From Ewingella americana ATCC 33852 (GTDB taxonomy: Bacteria > Pseudomonadota > Gammaproteobacteria > Enterobacterales > Enterobacteriaceae): a stretch of 64,000 nucleotides of DNA. A program made the position numbers and the translations under genes. The stretch is taken from positions 112,440-176,439 of the forward strand of contig NZ_JMPJ01000026.1 in assembly GCF_000735345.1 (NCBI RefSeq). The letters run 5' to 3'. How positions within the stretch are numbered: the stretch's first letter is position 1; each line of letters opens with the position of its first letter. This document shows, piece after piece, positions 37,234-57,473 of this stretch. The notes beneath the pieces are model-generated. The model was not told where the DNA came from and searched no databases. It saw only the letters and a program-made list of their open reading frames with translations.

Positions 37234-37947
37234 ATGCATAAGATTAAATTGGCACTAGGGGCGGTTTGCGTACTGCTGAGTTTGAACCAGAGCGCATTGG
37301 CGAAAGAAGCCAACCCCGCGCCGCTCTATCCGGGCGTCAACGTCGCGCAATTGGCGCAGCAGTCGCCGGTACACTGGGTATCAGTGGCGCAGATTGAAAA
37401 CAGTTTGGTGGGTCGCCCGCCGATTGCCGTGGGTTTTGATATTGATGACACCGTGCTGTTCTCCAGCCCTGGCTTCTACCGCGGGCAGAAAGAGTTCTCT
37501 CCGGGCAAAGAGGATTACCTGAAAAACCCGCAATTCTGGGAAAAGATGAACAACGGCTGGGATGATTTCAGCATTCCCAAAGAAGTGGCGAAGCAGCTGA
37601 TTGATATGCACCTCAAGCGCGGCGACAGCATTTATTTCGTCACTGGGCGCAACCAGACTAAAACCGAGACGGTGACTAAGACGCTGCAAGACGATTTCCA
37701 AATCCCGCGAGACAAGGTCAATCCAGTGATTTTCGCCGGAGATAAGCCGGGCCAAAATACCAAAACCCAGTGGCTGAAAGACAAGCAGATTAAGATTTTC
37801 TACGGCGATTCCGACGGTGATATCACCGCCGCACAGGCCGTCAGCGCCCGTGGTATCCGCGTTCTGCGCGCTTCTAACTCCAGCTATAAGCCACTGCCGC
37901 AGGCCGGGGTGTTTGGCGAGGAAGTGGTGGTTAATTCGGAGTATTGA
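37234..37947 (+). CDS. aphA: Class B acid phosphatase AphA
   Basis: A 237-residue periplasmic phosphatase with a signal peptide (about 1-23, ending ALA). The DDDD-superfamily motif [11 protein letters not shown] places the nucleophile at Asp69 and Asp71 next; [11 protein letters not shown] and YGDSDGDI are the other motifs. It hydrolyses nucleotides and other phosphomonoesters with Mg2+. AAAGGAAAA precedes the ATG. The stop codon abuts an intergenic inverted-repeat element. Confidence 0.95.
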
Positions 37948-38081
37948 TTGGTTTTTTTACTCCTTCTCCTCTCAGAGGAGAAGGCTGGGATGAGGAGTGG
38001 TTTAGCTCAAGGCTCAATGCGGCAAATCCCACACCCCGCCTGCCTCCCCTCCTGAGAGGGGAGGGAGCAAAAATAAACCAA
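37948..38081. repeat. 134 bp intergenic element with long terminal inverted repeats
   Basis: The left arm (about 37948-37999) and the reverse complement of the right arm (about 38028-38081) align over some 50 bases: both start TTGGTTT, then T-rich, then a C/T-rich palindrome (left stem CTTCTCCTCT / AGAGGAGAAG; right stem CTCCCCTC / GAGGGGAG), then GGCNGGGNTGNGG. No coding capacity. It fills the whole gap between aphA and the convergent binding-protein gene and may serve as a terminator for both. It looks like a MITE-like element or a pair of inverted palindromic repeats. Confidence 0.7.
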
Positions 38082-38088
38082 ACAAAAC

Positions 38089-38868
38089 TTACTTCACCGT
38101 CACATCGATATCGCCGAAATACTTCTTCGAAAGCTGCTGGATCACGCCTTCCTGCTTAATCTTGGCGATGGCGGCGTCTAGCTTCTGCTTATTGGCGGTG
38201 TCGCCTTTGCGCAGGCCGAAAGCGATGCCGCTGCCGAGGATTTTGTCATCGCGCACGGCGTCACCGACGAAGGCGAAATCTTTACCGTCCGGGCGGTCAA
38301 GGAAGCCGGTCTGCCCAGCCGGAGCCAGTACCAGCGTGCCGTCGAGGCGGCCGGAGGACAAGTCCAGATAGACCTGATTCTGATCCTGATAAGAGACCAC
38401 ATCGACCCCTTTCGGTGCCCAGTGCGCCTGCGCGTAGCTCTCCTGAATCGAGCCTTGCAGCACGCCAACGTGCTTGCCTTTCAGCGACTCAACCGTCGGC
38501 AGCAGGCCGGAGGACTTCTTGGCAATCAGCTGGCTTGGCACGCGGTAGATAACATCAGTGAAATCAATTGCCTGACGGCGTTTCTCGGTGACGTTCATCG
38601 CCGAGTTAATGGCATCGAATTTACGGGCTTGCAGCGCGGGGATCAGGCCGTCGAAGGCGGTATCGAACCACTCACACTTCAGCTTGGCGGCGGCGCAGAC
38701 CGCGTTACCCACGTCAATATCAAAGCCCTGCAACTCGCCGCTGGCGCTTTTTGATTCGAACGGCGGATATTGCGCTTCCAGACCAAATTTAAACGCGGTG
38801 CCCTCTGCCAGTGTTGAGAAAGAGGCCAGTGCGCAACCCAGCAGTAATGCAATCTTCATTTTTTTCAT
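38089..38868 (-). CDS. Amino-acid ABC transporter substrate-binding protein (family 3)
   Basis: A 259-residue periplasmic binding protein with a signal peptide (1-21, ending LAEG region) and the family 3 signatures FGLEAQYPPFESKSASGELQ and GFDIDVG. It resembles the lysine/arginine/ornithine and histidine-binding group. No permease or ATPase gene is adjacent, so it must use a transporter encoded elsewhere. It starts 18 bases downstream of ybdL on the same strand and is probably cotranscribed. Confidence 0.88.
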   Translation of the reverse strand: MKKMKIALLLGCALASFSTLAEGTAFKFGLEAQYPPFESKSASGELQGFDIDVGNAVCAAAKLKCEWFDTAFDGLIPALQARKFDAINSAMNVTEKRRQAIDFTDVIYRVPSQLIAKKSSGLLPTVESLKGKHVGVLQGSIQESYAQAHWAPKGVDVVSYQDQNQVYLDLSSGRLDGTLVLAPAGQTGFLDRPDGKDFAFVGDAVRDDKILGSGIAFGLRKGDTANKQKLDAAIAKIKQEGVIQQLSKKYFGDIDVTVK

Positions 38869-54797: not shown

Positions 54798-54869
54798 GTG
54801 ATACTGTTATCCAACAGGCGGGCTGTGTTTACGGCCTAAATTTTGTCCTCCATGCAAGAGGTAATCATC

Positions 54870-55580
54870 ATGGATCGATATCCACGCAGTAACGGCTCGA
54901 TTGTTGAACGCGCAAACTCCGGCATTCAAGCCTACATGGCGCAGGTCTATGGTTGGATGACCTGTGGTCTGCTATTAACCGCATTTGTTGCCTGGTACGC
55001 ATCTCGCTCACCGGCCATTCTCGGTTTTATTTTCTCCAGCCAGATAACCTTCTTTGGTCTGATCATCGCCCAGCTGGCGCTGGTCTTCGTGATTTCCGGC
55101 ATGGTTAACCGCCTGAGCGGCACCGTCGCTACCGGCTTGTTCATGCTGTATTCGGCCTTAACCGGGCTGACGCTCTCCAGCATTTTTATCGTCTACACCG
55201 GCTCTTCCATCGCCAGCACCTTCGTCGTGGCAGGCGGGATGTTCGGCGCGATGAGCGTGTTCGGCTACACCACCAAACGCGACCTGAGCCGCATGGGCAG
55301 CCTGCTGTTCATGGGGTTGATTGGTATCGTGCTGGCGTCGCTGGTCAATATCTGGCTGAAAAGCCCGGCATTGATGTGGGCGGTGACCTACATTGGCGTG
55401 GTTATCTTCGTTGGTCTGACAGCCTATGACACCCAGAAGTTGAAAAACATGGGTGAGCAGCTGAACGTGAATGACAAAGACAATTTCCGCAAATACTCGA
55501 TTGTTGGCGCATTGACGCTGTATTTGGATTTCATCAACCTGTTCCTGATGTTGTTGCGGATTTTTGGTAATCGTCGGTAG
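54870..55580 (+). CDS. ybhL: Bax inhibitor-1 family inner-membrane protein YbhL
   Basis: A 236-residue protein with seven transmembrane helices of the BI-1/YccA family. The C-terminal FVGLTAYDTQKLKNMGEQ and GALTLYLDFINLFLMLLRIF stretches are nearly identical to E. coli YbhL (234 residues). Its function is unclear; family members are linked to Ca2+ leak and quality control. ATG 54870 (MDRYPRSNGS) has an AGAGG site and matches E. coli. Confidence 0.94.
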   Translation: MDRYPRSNGSIVERANSGIQAYMAQVYGWMTCGLLLTAFVAWYASRSPAILGFIFSSQITFFGLIIAQLALVFVISGMVNRLSGTVATGLFMLYSALTGLTLSSIFIVYTGSSIASTFVVAGGMFGAMSVFGYTTKRDLSRMGSLLFMGLIGIVLASLVNIWLKSPALMWAVTYIGVVIFVGLTAYDTQKLKNMGEQLNVNDKDNFRKYSIVGALTLYLDFINLFLMLLRIFGNRR

Positions 55581-55601: not shown

Positions 55602-55630
55602 AGGGGGCCGAAAGGCCCCTTTTTGTTTTT
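55602..55630 (+). terminator. Rho-independent terminator after ybhL
   Basis: A GGGGCC / GGCCCC stem with a GAAA tetraloop is followed by TTTTTGTTTTTT. Confidence 0.9.
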
Positions 55631-55662
55631 TGGGCGGCGGCCCAAATGCGGTTTAAATCTTT

Positions 55663-55710
55663 GAATTCAAATTCAAATTCAAATTCAAATTCAAATTCAA
55701 ATTCAAATTC
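55663..55710. repeat. Tandem hexamer repeat, 8 units
   Basis: One GAATTC followed by seven perfect AAATTC units lies at the outer end of the left arm of the inverted-repeat element. Such an array is prone to slippage and copy-number change. Confidence 0.95.
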
Positions 55711-55737
55711 AAGGTCGTGGGCGTCGGCCCACACCGA

Positions 55738-55767
55738 CCAAGGGAGGCGTAAACGCGCCTCCCTTGG
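55738..55767. repeat. 12 bp hairpin in left arm
   Basis: CCAAGGGAGGCG pairs perfectly with CGCCTCCCTTGG around TAAACG. The right arm has a hairpin of equal stem length but different sequence at 56184-56215. Confidence 0.85.
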
Positions 55768-56183
55768 AACCCTGCGTTTTTTCTTGTTGTGAGATCGAGG
55801 CTGCGCAGTGTTGGAATGGACGTGTTTCAGCAGCCACAATGATCGTCGCGAAGTGCCGCCGCTTAGGCGGTTCCCTCAGTTCGGGCTTCGAGCCATAGGT
55901 CTCGAACCACTCCCTCGGCGTCACTTCTGAACGCGACCTACTGGCATTTACGCCGAACCGTTCCATTCCACCTCGCAAAACATATAAGAAACCCACTGAA
56001 ACGGCACGATTGAGAAGCCTCAAAACCGCAGTCAAAAATGGCGCTGAGCGAGAGGTTCGAGACCTATGGCTCGAATCCCGTGGCGAAGGAACCGCCTAAG
56101 CGGCGACATTTTGCGGTGGATAACTGAAGTACCTGAAACACGTCCGGCCAACGAGCGAAGCGCGCAGTATAGAGCCGGGGAGT

Positions 56184-56215
56184 CTTGAGGGGCGCGGCGA
56201 TAGGCGCCCCTCAAG
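56184..56215. repeat. 12 bp hairpin in right arm
   Basis: CTTGAGGGGCGC pairs perfectly with GCGCCCCTCAAG around an 8-base loop. It occupies the same place relative to the hexamer repeats as the left-arm hairpin. Confidence 0.85.
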
Positions 56216-56236
56216 GCCGGTGTGGCGGCAGCGCAC

Positions 56237-56272
56237 GACCTTGACCTTGACCTTGAATTTGAATTTGAATTT
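56237..56272. repeat. Tandem hexamer repeat, two variants
   Basis: Three GACCTT units are followed by three GAATTT units (complement of AAATTC). The last unit runs into the stop codon of mdtG (TTA at 56271-56273 on the plus strand). Confidence 0.92.
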
Positions 56273-57473
56273 AAAATCTCGTCTGGCGTGTCGGTACACG
56301 CCGAAAACTCCACGCTACCTGTATCAGGTTAAACAACACTAGGATCGCGGTGACGAGAAATACCCACCGGAAGCCCATTAGCGCTGAGACGCCGGAGCCG
56401 AGCAGGGGGCCGATGACGTTGCCGAGATACATAAATGATTGGTTATAACCAAAGATGCGGCCGGTGGTTTGGTCGCTGCTGTATTTCACCAATAGCGCCT
56501 GAATCGCGGGCATTAGCGCGCCGTCGCAGAAACCGAGCATAAAGCGCAGGATGCCTAGCTGGGTCGGTGAGCTGATGGTGGACATCAAGCAGAACAGCAC
56601 GAAGCACAGCACCAGCGCGGCGATGAGGATGCGGTGCGCGCCGATTCGGTCGCCCAATTTGCCGAGCTTCGGCGCGGACATCAGCGCGGAGACGCCCGGC
56701 ACGGCGGCGATCACCCCGCTGATAAAGGCGATATTACTGGTGTCGGAAGAGAGGTCACGGATGAACAGCGTCAGGATTGGGCTGATGGAACCGTTGGCCA
56801 ACTGCACCATCAGCGTGGTGACGAACAGGCTGACAATCAGCCACGGGTAGGGCAGCGCGGTGAAGACGGCTTTGCCGCTCAGGCGATCGGCCTTGGCGAC
56901 TGGCACCACGCGCTCTTTGATTAAGAACAGAGTTATCAAGAAACTGGTGAATAACATGCCGCCGGTGACGAAAAACACCGTGCGCAGGCCGAGGTGGTCG
57001 GCCATAAAACCGCCGAGCAACGGGCCGATGATGACGCCAGCTACTTGCCCGGTAGACAGCGTGCCAAGCGCCCAGCCGCTCTTATCGCGCGGAACCTGCG
57101 AGGCCACTAAAGCCATGGCATTGGGGATATAACCTGATGTCAAACCCATCAGCGTGCGCAGGATAAACAGCTGCCAGACGTTGGTGGCGAAACCTTGCAA
57201 CACCATCACAATCGCCATGCCCAGCGCGGCGCGCAGCAGCATTAGCTTACGGCCTTTACGGTCGGCGAGACTACCCCAGAGCGGGGCGACAATGGCGGAA
57301 ACTAAAAAGGTGCCGCTGAAGACTAAACCAGACCATAAACTCAGGGATGCGTGGGAAGTGACGCCCAGCTGTTCAATATAAAGTGGCAGGAAAGGCAGGA
57401 TTTGGCTCATCGCCATGCCGGTGAAAAAACACCCGAGCCAGACGGAGATTAAATTGAGTTTCCAAGTTTCCAT
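56271..57473 (-). CDS. mdtG: Multidrug efflux MFS transporter MdtG
   Basis: A 400-residue MFS drug:proton antiporter with 12 transmembrane helices. The stretch [20 protein letters not shown] is motif A, and [24 protein letters not shown] and [10 protein letters not shown] closely match E. coli MdtG (408 residues). In E. coli overexpression gives fosfomycin and deoxycholate tolerance. The 3' end abuts the hexamer array of the inverted-repeat element. Confidence 0.88.

What the first reader, a model, noticed from the sequence alone, without database searches (positions are those of the whole stretch)
55640..56272. A 630 bp inverted pair of related non-coding units between ybhL and mdtG
The gap between two ordinary genes holds two diverged copies of one roughly 250-280 bp unit facing each other. 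Blocks of 22, 18 and 13 bases are identical in inverted orientation, while the intervening sequence differs, so the copies have evolved separately or have been kept similar only where it matters. Each unit contains several stems (TTCGAG / CTCGAA, CCGCC / GGCGG, a 12 bp hairpin) and ends in AAATTC hexamers. The pattern suggests a structured RNA or mobile non-coding element rather than random repeats. I know of no named family that fits, though similar hexamer-tailed intergenic sequences may exist in related genomes.
Basis: seen in the sequence. Interest (0 to 1): 0.72.

Follow-up and report, generated by a model that had tools for sequence, protein, structure and literature searches.

The report
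Invertible palindromic repeats at gene ends
The stretch is one copy of a non-coding, two-armed DNA repeat that sits at dozens of places in this Ewingella-like bacterium and its relatives, mostly where two genes end facing each other, and that can flip, collapse and swap its hairpin parts in place.

Summary
55652-56275 is one copy of a dispersed non-coding element: two structured arms of about 270 bp, head to head. The genome has at least 57 arm cores, a same-genus genome at least 71; Ewingella americana, Rahnella species and Rouxiella aceris have their own versions. Rouxiella badensis and E. coli gave none. I found no named family.

In the better-assembled relative 28 of 40 sites lie between convergent genes. 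Of 39 element loci in this genome, 35 fall at a site also occupied there, yet content at a site turns over: hairpin modules swap, one whole element is inverted (612 bp, 98.2% identity), and at two sites only one end palindrome is left. Paired arms are never alike (0 of 45 above 80% identity, against 37% of arm pairs from different copies). Stems covary strongly, with little preference for G·U over A·C, which fits structure kept in DNA better than in RNA.

Best reading: a foldback-like, non-autonomous mosaic element, related in kind to BIMEs and MITEs. Its end palindromes act as symmetric recombination points, and dissimilar arms avoid an unstable long palindrome. Mobilising enzyme and any host function remain unknown.

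The parts
54843..55580 (+). ybhL (left flanking gene, reads towards the element)
   Evidence: ORF; YbhL relatives found in named Enterobacterales
55603..55624 (+). ybhL intrinsic terminator (GGGGGCC GAAA GGCCCC TTTTT), outside the element
   Evidence: seen; similar terminators stand there in relatives with and without the element
55630..55645 (.). extra outer palindrome (TTGGGCGGCGGCCCAA), module-A-like
   Evidence: seen; similar palindromes lie outside other copies
55652..55714 (.). left hexamer tail, AAATTC array
   Evidence: direct repeats D1
55717..55732 (+). left end palindrome, module A (GTGGGCGTCGGCCCAC)
55738..55767 (+). left hairpin B, 12-bp perfect stem, type I allele
   Evidence: 21 distinct B hairpins in 121 arms of two genomes
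55818..55966 (+). left arm core (type I): GTTTCAG box, long-range stem, hairpins C and D, inner box
   Evidence: 173.6 bits; typed
55845..55855 (+). long-range stem, 5' side (pairs with 55922-55937)
   Evidence: A1 columns 29-39; covariation
55856..55870 (+). hairpin C
   Evidence: helix 3
55887..55906 (+). hairpin D (TTCGAGCC-ATA-GGTCTCGAA), allele D1
   Evidence: helix 4; allele swaps
55922..55937 (+). long-range stem, 3' side, with a 5-nt bulge
   Evidence: A1 columns 123-138
55967..55995 (.). central spacer between the two arm cores
55996..56145 (-). right arm core (type II), reads outer to inner on the - strand
   Evidence: 165.7 bits; typed
56184..56215 (-). right hairpin B, 12-bp perfect stem, type II allele
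56222..56236 (-). right end palindrome, module A variant (GTGCGCTGCCGCCAC)
   Evidence: seen; aligned
56237..56275 (.). right hexamer tail (AAGGTC x3, AAATTC x3), overlaps the mdtG stop
56271..57473 (-). mdtG (right flanking gene, reads towards the element)
   Evidence: ORF; aligned to relatives

Best explanation
It is one copy of a dispersed, non-coding, non-autonomous DNA element with a foldback layout: [hexamer tail - end palindrome A - hairpin B - GTTTCAG box - branched stem with hairpins C and D - inner GTTTCAG-type box] - short spacer - [the same, inverted]. SHOWN: a family with dozens of arm cores in most carrier genomes looked at; mostly between convergent genes; sites kept across species; one whole-element inversion whose reversed stretch ends in A modules on both sides; two sites with a single A left between both tails; hairpin-module swaps; two dissimilar arms per element. 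INFERRED: the palindromic A modules at both ends serve at once as inverted and as direct repeats, so recombination between them either flips or deletes the element, like a symmetric recombination site. Hairpins are kept perfect in DNA by template switching and by conversion among copies. Dissimilar arms are kept because a near-perfect 600-bp palindrome would be cut or lost. The convergent-gene position is where such DNA does least harm, or has some gene-end role. The copies were once spread by a transposase or recombinase that was not found.
For: Family and counts. Restricted range: 6 of 246 genomes, 3 of 154 genera (12 candidates scored a genome). Convergent sites: 28 of 40 in G001, 16 of the 20 G000 loci with a gene call on both sides, against 8 of 39 background gaps in the window. 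Shared sites: 35 of 39 G000 loci; 28 of 44 fetched loci of other species match the flank of a G000 or G001 site. Inversion L008/L182, 612 bp at 98.2%. Single A left at L240 and L243, with the L098 site occupied in both outgroups looked at. Module swaps. Two arm types: 28 of 30 pairs mixed in G001 (0 of 100,000 permutations as high), 11 of 15 in G000 (p 0.05). Arm identity within an element at most 0.776, 0 of 45 above 0.80, against 37% between elements. Covariation: 94.3% paired against at most 40.9% slid on A1; 91.2% against at most 41.9% on A2, which was fitted to the model. Little G·U preference. A 246-bp interrupted palindrome is cut by SbcCD in E. coli (PMC3315005, passages). Template switching can create and repair stems (PMC8794818, abstract).
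Against: No copy was caught inserting; no clean empty site or target duplication was found. Only one transposase family was searched for (Y1, PF01797: absent from G000, and from five of eight other carriers); DDE transposases and site-specific recombinases were not. Only one inversion is proven along its whole length; six more of 20 determinable sites rest on arm order alone. G000 alone gives only borderline support for mixed arms (p 0.05). Site conservation across species could mean host selection and not a passive element. The covariation by itself would also fit a selected RNA. The two plasmid-borne matches opened are not convergent as annotated.
Confidence: 0.6

Rival explanations
1. Gene-end RNA element: each arm, read from the gene that runs into it, folds as a 3' structure that ends or protects the mRNA; the inverted pair serves both convergent genes.
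For: 28 of 40 sites convergent; arms face the gene ends at a median gap of 47 nt, and only 11 of 93 such gene ends have a recognisable intrinsic terminator of their own; strong covariation. REPs are found mostly between convergent and tandem genes and were argued to act as RNA (PMC3733652, passages).
Against: Little G·U preference; one intrinsic-terminator-like end inside an arm over 93 gene ends; occupied and unoccupied orthologous sites coexist among Rahnella species; ybhL keeps its own terminator.
Confidence: 0.2
2. MITE: internally deleted copies of a cut-and-paste transposon whose long inverted ends are the arms.
For: Some Rahnella copies end in an imperfect 24-bp terminal inverted repeat; total size about 550-620 bp; presence/absence at orthologous sites.
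Against: No target-site duplication seen by eye at three copies; among the G000 and G001 pairs examined none has an obvious transposase between the arms (ORFs judged by eye); outer ends differ between genera.
Confidence: 0.12
3. REP/REPIN-type repeats spread by a RAYT (Y1 transposase).
For: Module A is a short palindrome that opens with GTGG, as some REPs do (recalled), and occurs in tandem and at both ends.
Against: No Y1 transposase in G000 or in 5 of 8 other carriers; in the three that have one, no A palindrome flanks it. The 150-nt branched core has no counterpart in REPs as I know them (recalled).
Confidence: 0.05
4. A chromosome-organising site (for example a topoisomerase or condensin loading site) selected between convergent genes, where positive supercoils meet, mainly in the terminus half.
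For: Convergent placement; 35 of 41 G001 sites in the terminus-side half if the origin is at 0; site conservation.
Against: The terminus bias falls to 28 of 41 with the origin at 150 kb; Rouxiella badensis lacks the element; no binding data.
Confidence: 0.08

Closest known systems
BIME / REP (bacterial interspersed mosaic elements)
   Same: Intergenic, palindromic units in opposite orientation, mosaic make-up, convergent or 3'-end location (PMC3733652, passages)
   Different: Far larger (about 600 bp), branched 150-nt core with GTTTCAG boxes, no RAYT linked, no match in 20,395 E. coli records
ERIC / RU-1, RU-2, RU-3 (enterobacterial MITE-like repeats)
   Same: Non-coding intergenic repeats of Enterobacterales
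   Different: 103-168 bp (PMC2759123, passages) against about 600 bp; E. coli genomes, which carry RU-1, give no match
BOX elements of pneumococcus
   Same: Modular, stem-rich, many intergenic copies (recalled)
   Different: Different organism and modules (recalled); not compared by sequence here
Drosophila foldback (FB) elements
   Same: Long modular inverted arms with short tandem repeats and a middle of variable content (recalled)
   Different: Bacterial and short; no sequence comparison made; analogy only
attC sites of integrons
   Same: Imperfect folded stem with bulged bases flanked by short boxes (recalled)
   Different: Arranged as inverted pairs, not cassette arrays; an integrase was not looked for

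Membership tests
REP / BIME / REPIN | Associated Y1 (RAYT) transposase in the genome | tested here: not met
   None in G000; 3 of 8 other carriers have one, not flanked by module A
REP / BIME / REPIN | Short palindromes (20-40 bp) in opposite orientation | tested here: met
   Module A at both ends and in tandem
REP / BIME / REPIN | Convergent or gene-end location | tested here: met
   28 of 40 sites convergent in G001; 16 of 20 two-sided G000 loci
ERIC / RU | Sequence match to copies in E. coli | tested here: not met
   No match in 20,395 E. coli records at E 1e-3
MITE | Terminal inverted repeats | tested here: met
   Imperfect 24-bp ends in some Rahnella copies; module A plus tail in Ewingella
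MITE | Target-site duplication | tested here: inconclusive
   None seen at three Rahnella copies; flanks too diverged for an empty site
MITE | Parent transposon with the same ends | tested here: inconclusive
   No transposase-bearing copy noticed among fetched loci, but only the Y1 family was searched for
Known RNA family (Rfam 15) | Score above a family's gathering cut-off | tested here: not met
   Only mir-4637, 24.3 bits against 89 needed
Intrinsic terminator | GC hairpin followed directly by a T run, in the arm | tested here: not met
   One such end over 93 gene ends
BOX | boxA-boxB-boxC modules | not tested
   No BOX sequence was compared

The most novel reading that the evidence does not exclude
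A bacterial 'foldback' element whose palindromic ends behave as symmetric recombination sites. The same sites give both in-place inversion and collapse. Pairing of two unlike arms is enforced by palindrome-cutting nucleases, and hairpin alleles are reshuffled across the genome while the sites between convergent genes stay fixed for the age of a genus or more. If the flips are frequent within a strain, convergent gene ends would be a phase-variable DNA structure.
Probability: 0.25. Interest if true: 0.8.

Novelty: new variant of a known kind. Interest (0 to 1): 0.6.

Why it matters
Bacterial intergenic repeats are usually short and simple. Here a 600-bp, branched, two-armed repeat has been kept at the same, mostly convergent, gene ends across species while its content flips, collapses and recombines. 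That gives a natural, sequence-readable record of how cells tolerate long inverted repeats, and a way to tell structure kept in DNA from structure kept in RNA. It also warns that strong base-pair covariation alone does not prove a functional RNA. It bears on assembly too: 19 of the 39 loci of this draft genome lie within about 160 bp of a contig end.

Tried and rejected
Unique local duplication: rejected, 112 matching pieces in the own genome. Known RNA family: rejected. E. coli-type repeats (ERIC, RU, BIME) and phage origin: no match. RAYT-driven REPs: not supported. Intrinsic terminator inside the arm: rejected. The comparison of own-terminator rates (11 of 93 against 70 of 245 control ends) is weak, because the controls repeat the same genes from many species and come from other genomes. 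Clean empty site with target duplication: sought at ybhL-mdtG in ten Rahnella loci and at the L095 site, not found. Terminus-half enrichment: 35 of 41 with the origin at 0, 36 of 41 at 4.45 Mb, 28 of 41 at 150 kb.

Orientation flips beyond L008/L182: the 35 matched G000 loci are 32 sites. By hand, arm order can be read at 20 of them: 13 same, 7 reversed (L008, L090, L093/L097, L099, L106, L113, L117). Left out are 12: homotypic, solo or changed pairs (L007, L091, L096, L103, L109, L111, L112, L114, L115, L116, L120) and L119, a 112-bit partial that would read as reversed. Most of the seven show one arm only in G000, and arm replacement could mimic a flip; identity settles L106 and L099 neither way.

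Literature: ten searches. The four that name Rahnella or Ewingella (17, 20, 63, 86) listed 0, 4, 1 and 0 papers, none of which looked like a description of this family by title and start of abstract. Passages of PMC3733652, PMC2267715 and PMC12306157 do not mention Rahnella or Ewingella. Subscription papers are mostly not held.

Full report
WHAT IS THERE. Between ybhL (54843-55580, +) and mdtG (56271-57473, -) lie two inverted arms. Outside to inside, each arm has a hexamer tail, a short palindrome (module A), a perfect 12-bp hairpin (B), a GTTTCAG box, a branched core with a long-range stem enclosing hairpins C and D, and a second GTTTCAG-type box. A spacer of 29 bp separates the two cores.

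A FAMILY. The 633 bp gives 112 matching pieces in this genome, and all 6 genomes of the genus that were searched have matches. A covariance model of the core, R1, was built from 41 of 51 full-length G000 arm cores. With it there are 57 cores in this genome (G000) and 71 in a better-assembled same-genus genome, G001 (150 candidates scored per genome, so lower bounds). Ewingella americana E4 has 78, Hafnia psychrotolerans 52, 'AwEntero' 45, a metagenome-assembled genome 74, Rahnella rivi 51, Rouxiella aceris 64, Rahnella inusitata 7 and Rouxiella badensis 0 (R. rivi and R. aceris named by a 100% ybhL match). Across the GTDB family 6 of 246 sampled genomes and 3 of 154 genera had a match at E 1e-6, with strict filters and 12 candidates scored a genome. 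E. coli genomes and phages gave none; 9 plasmid records, all Rahnella, gave partial matches. Identical contig places show that the genus of the window includes E. americana E4, H. psychrotolerans and AwEntero; flanking genes are 80-83% identical to theirs.

STRUCTURE. On 41 arms of G000 the 22 proposed pairs are 94.3% paired, with 73 two-sided changes; sliding the partner by 1-3 columns gives at most 40.9%. On 116 matches from nine genomes (115 distinct) it is 91.2% and 243 two-sided changes, against at most 41.9%; that alignment was fitted to the model, so it leans towards the structure. Departures from pairing are G·U 25 and A·C 20 in A1, 83 and 57 in A2, where one column gives 50 of the 83; columns with any G·U are 6 and 8, with any A·C 8 and 13. 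Hairpin B, with 21 distinct sequences in 121 arms of G000 and G001, has no G·U (the stem was chosen for most Watson-Crick pairs, a small bias, and the A·C count there is inflated by ends outside the stem). If the arms were selected as RNA in the sense in which the genes run into them, G·U should be clearly favoured. This points to structure kept in DNA. Template switching during replication can both create and repair such stems (PMC8794818, abstract), so covariation need not mean RNA function.

WHERE IT SITS. In G001 28 of 40 fetched sites lie between convergent genes, 5 are --, 4 ++, 2 divergent and 1 undetermined (longest-ORF calls). Of the 20 G000 loci with a gene call on both sides, 16 are convergent, 3 are -- and 1 divergent. 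The background in the window is 8 convergent of 39 gaps of 30 bp or more (this includes spurious ORFs in the element). Arms face the gene ends at a median gap of 47 nt. Against: the two Rahnella plasmid matches that I opened are not convergent as annotated, though that gene table is incomplete. In G001, 35 of 41 sites lie in the terminus-side half if the origin is at 0, 28 of 41 if it is at 150 kb.

SITES STAY, CONTENT CHANGES. Of 39 G000 loci, 35 match the flanks of an occupied G001 site, at 85-97% identity and mostly near 93%; three sites are counted twice as the broken halves of one site. Of 44 fetched loci of other species (some of them the same place), 28 match the flank of a G000 or G001 site, including one place each in Rahnella inusitata and R. 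rivi with both flanks; the three R. aceris loci do not. At ybhL-mdtG four of ten Rahnella loci are occupied (two with only one arm found), and three of the others hold a different inverted-pair repeat. Content turns over: at several orthologous arms hairpin D or B has been exchanged for another allele, and a paralogue is often closer than the orthologue. At other sites the orthologous arms stay 95-99% identical (for example L002, L006, L103).

INVERSION AND COLLAPSE. At L008/L182 the whole element is reversed between two species: 612 bp match at 98.2% on the opposite strand while the flanks run the same way, and the reversed stretch ends in module-A copies on both sides. Arm order is reversed at 7 of 20 determinable sites, L008 included (by hand). 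At two G000 sites, G001 has only one A palindrome between the two outer tails (L243 for L095, L240 for L098); an outer TTGGGC palindrome beside it is also present. The L098 site is occupied in E. americana and H. psychrotolerans, so there the element was lost in G001. At the L095 site these two outgroups have neither element nor A, so gain and loss cannot be told apart. The other two unmatched G000 loci, L092 and L118, were not tested. Because A is itself a palindrome, two copies at opposite ends are inverted and direct repeats at once, and exchange between them can flip or delete what lies between. This is inference from the products.

UNLIKE ARMS. Arms fall into two types. Of pairs with both arms over 220 nt, 28 of 30 in G001 are mixed (0 of 100,000 permutations as high) and 11 of 15 in G000 (p 0.05). 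Identity between the two arms of one element never exceeds 0.776 (0 of 45 above 0.80), whereas 37% of arm pairs from different elements exceed 0.80. The six like-type pairs, at 0.706-0.776, lie below the like-type average of 0.82, two of them under its 5th percentile. In E. coli a 246-bp interrupted palindrome is cut by SbcCD, while an 85-bp one is not cut during replication (PMC3315005, passages). Selection against near-perfect palindromes is the simplest reading; descent from one two-ended ancestor is the other, and the two are compatible.

MOBILITY. Presence and absence among relatives implies spread or loss, but no insertion was caught. The Y1 transposase family is absent from G000 and from five of eight other carriers; in the three that have it, no A palindrome flanks it. 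Other transposase and recombinase families were not searched for. Some Rahnella copies end in an imperfect 24-bp terminal inverted repeat. Two G000 pairs enclose genes: an HTH-cupin-like and a GNAT-like ORF in L111, a P-loop-like ORF in L116 (names are by eye, from no search).

VERDICT. A real repeat family, unnamed as far as the ten paper searches reach, of a known broad kind, with an unusual anatomy and in-place rearrangements read directly from related genomes. Function is open.

Noticed in passing
window 37960-37984: A perfect copy of another palindromic repeat, CTCCTTCTCCTCTCAGAGGAGAAGG, between convergent ORFs 37234-37947 (+) and 38089-38868 (-). The same module follows several solo type I arms.
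   Followed up: partly
L079, L084, L087 (Rahnella victoriana, woolbedingensis, bruchi), ybhL-mdtG gap: A different inverted pair of CTCCC-rich hairpins, about 150 bp, occupies the same convergent gap that holds the present element in other species.
   Followed up: no
L168 568-1701 (Rouxiella aceris): Four arm cores in direct tandem about 300-360 bp apart, unlike the inverted pairs elsewhere.
   Followed up: no
L111 1830-3082; L116 175-836: Genes lie between the two arms of an element (two ORFs in L111, one in L116); G001 has arms at similar distances at both sites (L205, L200).
   Followed up: partly
G001 chromosome C1: Element sites crowd into 1.19-2.15 Mb, on one side of the GC-skew switch; 35 of 41 in the terminus-side half if the origin is at 0.
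   Followed up: partly
L210, L211, L212: Single Y1-transposase-like genes in E. americana, a MAG and H. psychrotolerans, in L211 and L212 beside a long ORF that looks ATP-grasp-like by eye, without flanking palindromes of type A.
   Followed up: partly
G000 contig ends (for example L090, L097, L106, L107, L110, L118): 19 of the 39 G000 loci lie within about 160 bp of a contig end, so the family may account for part of the assembly's 92 contigs.
   Followed up: no
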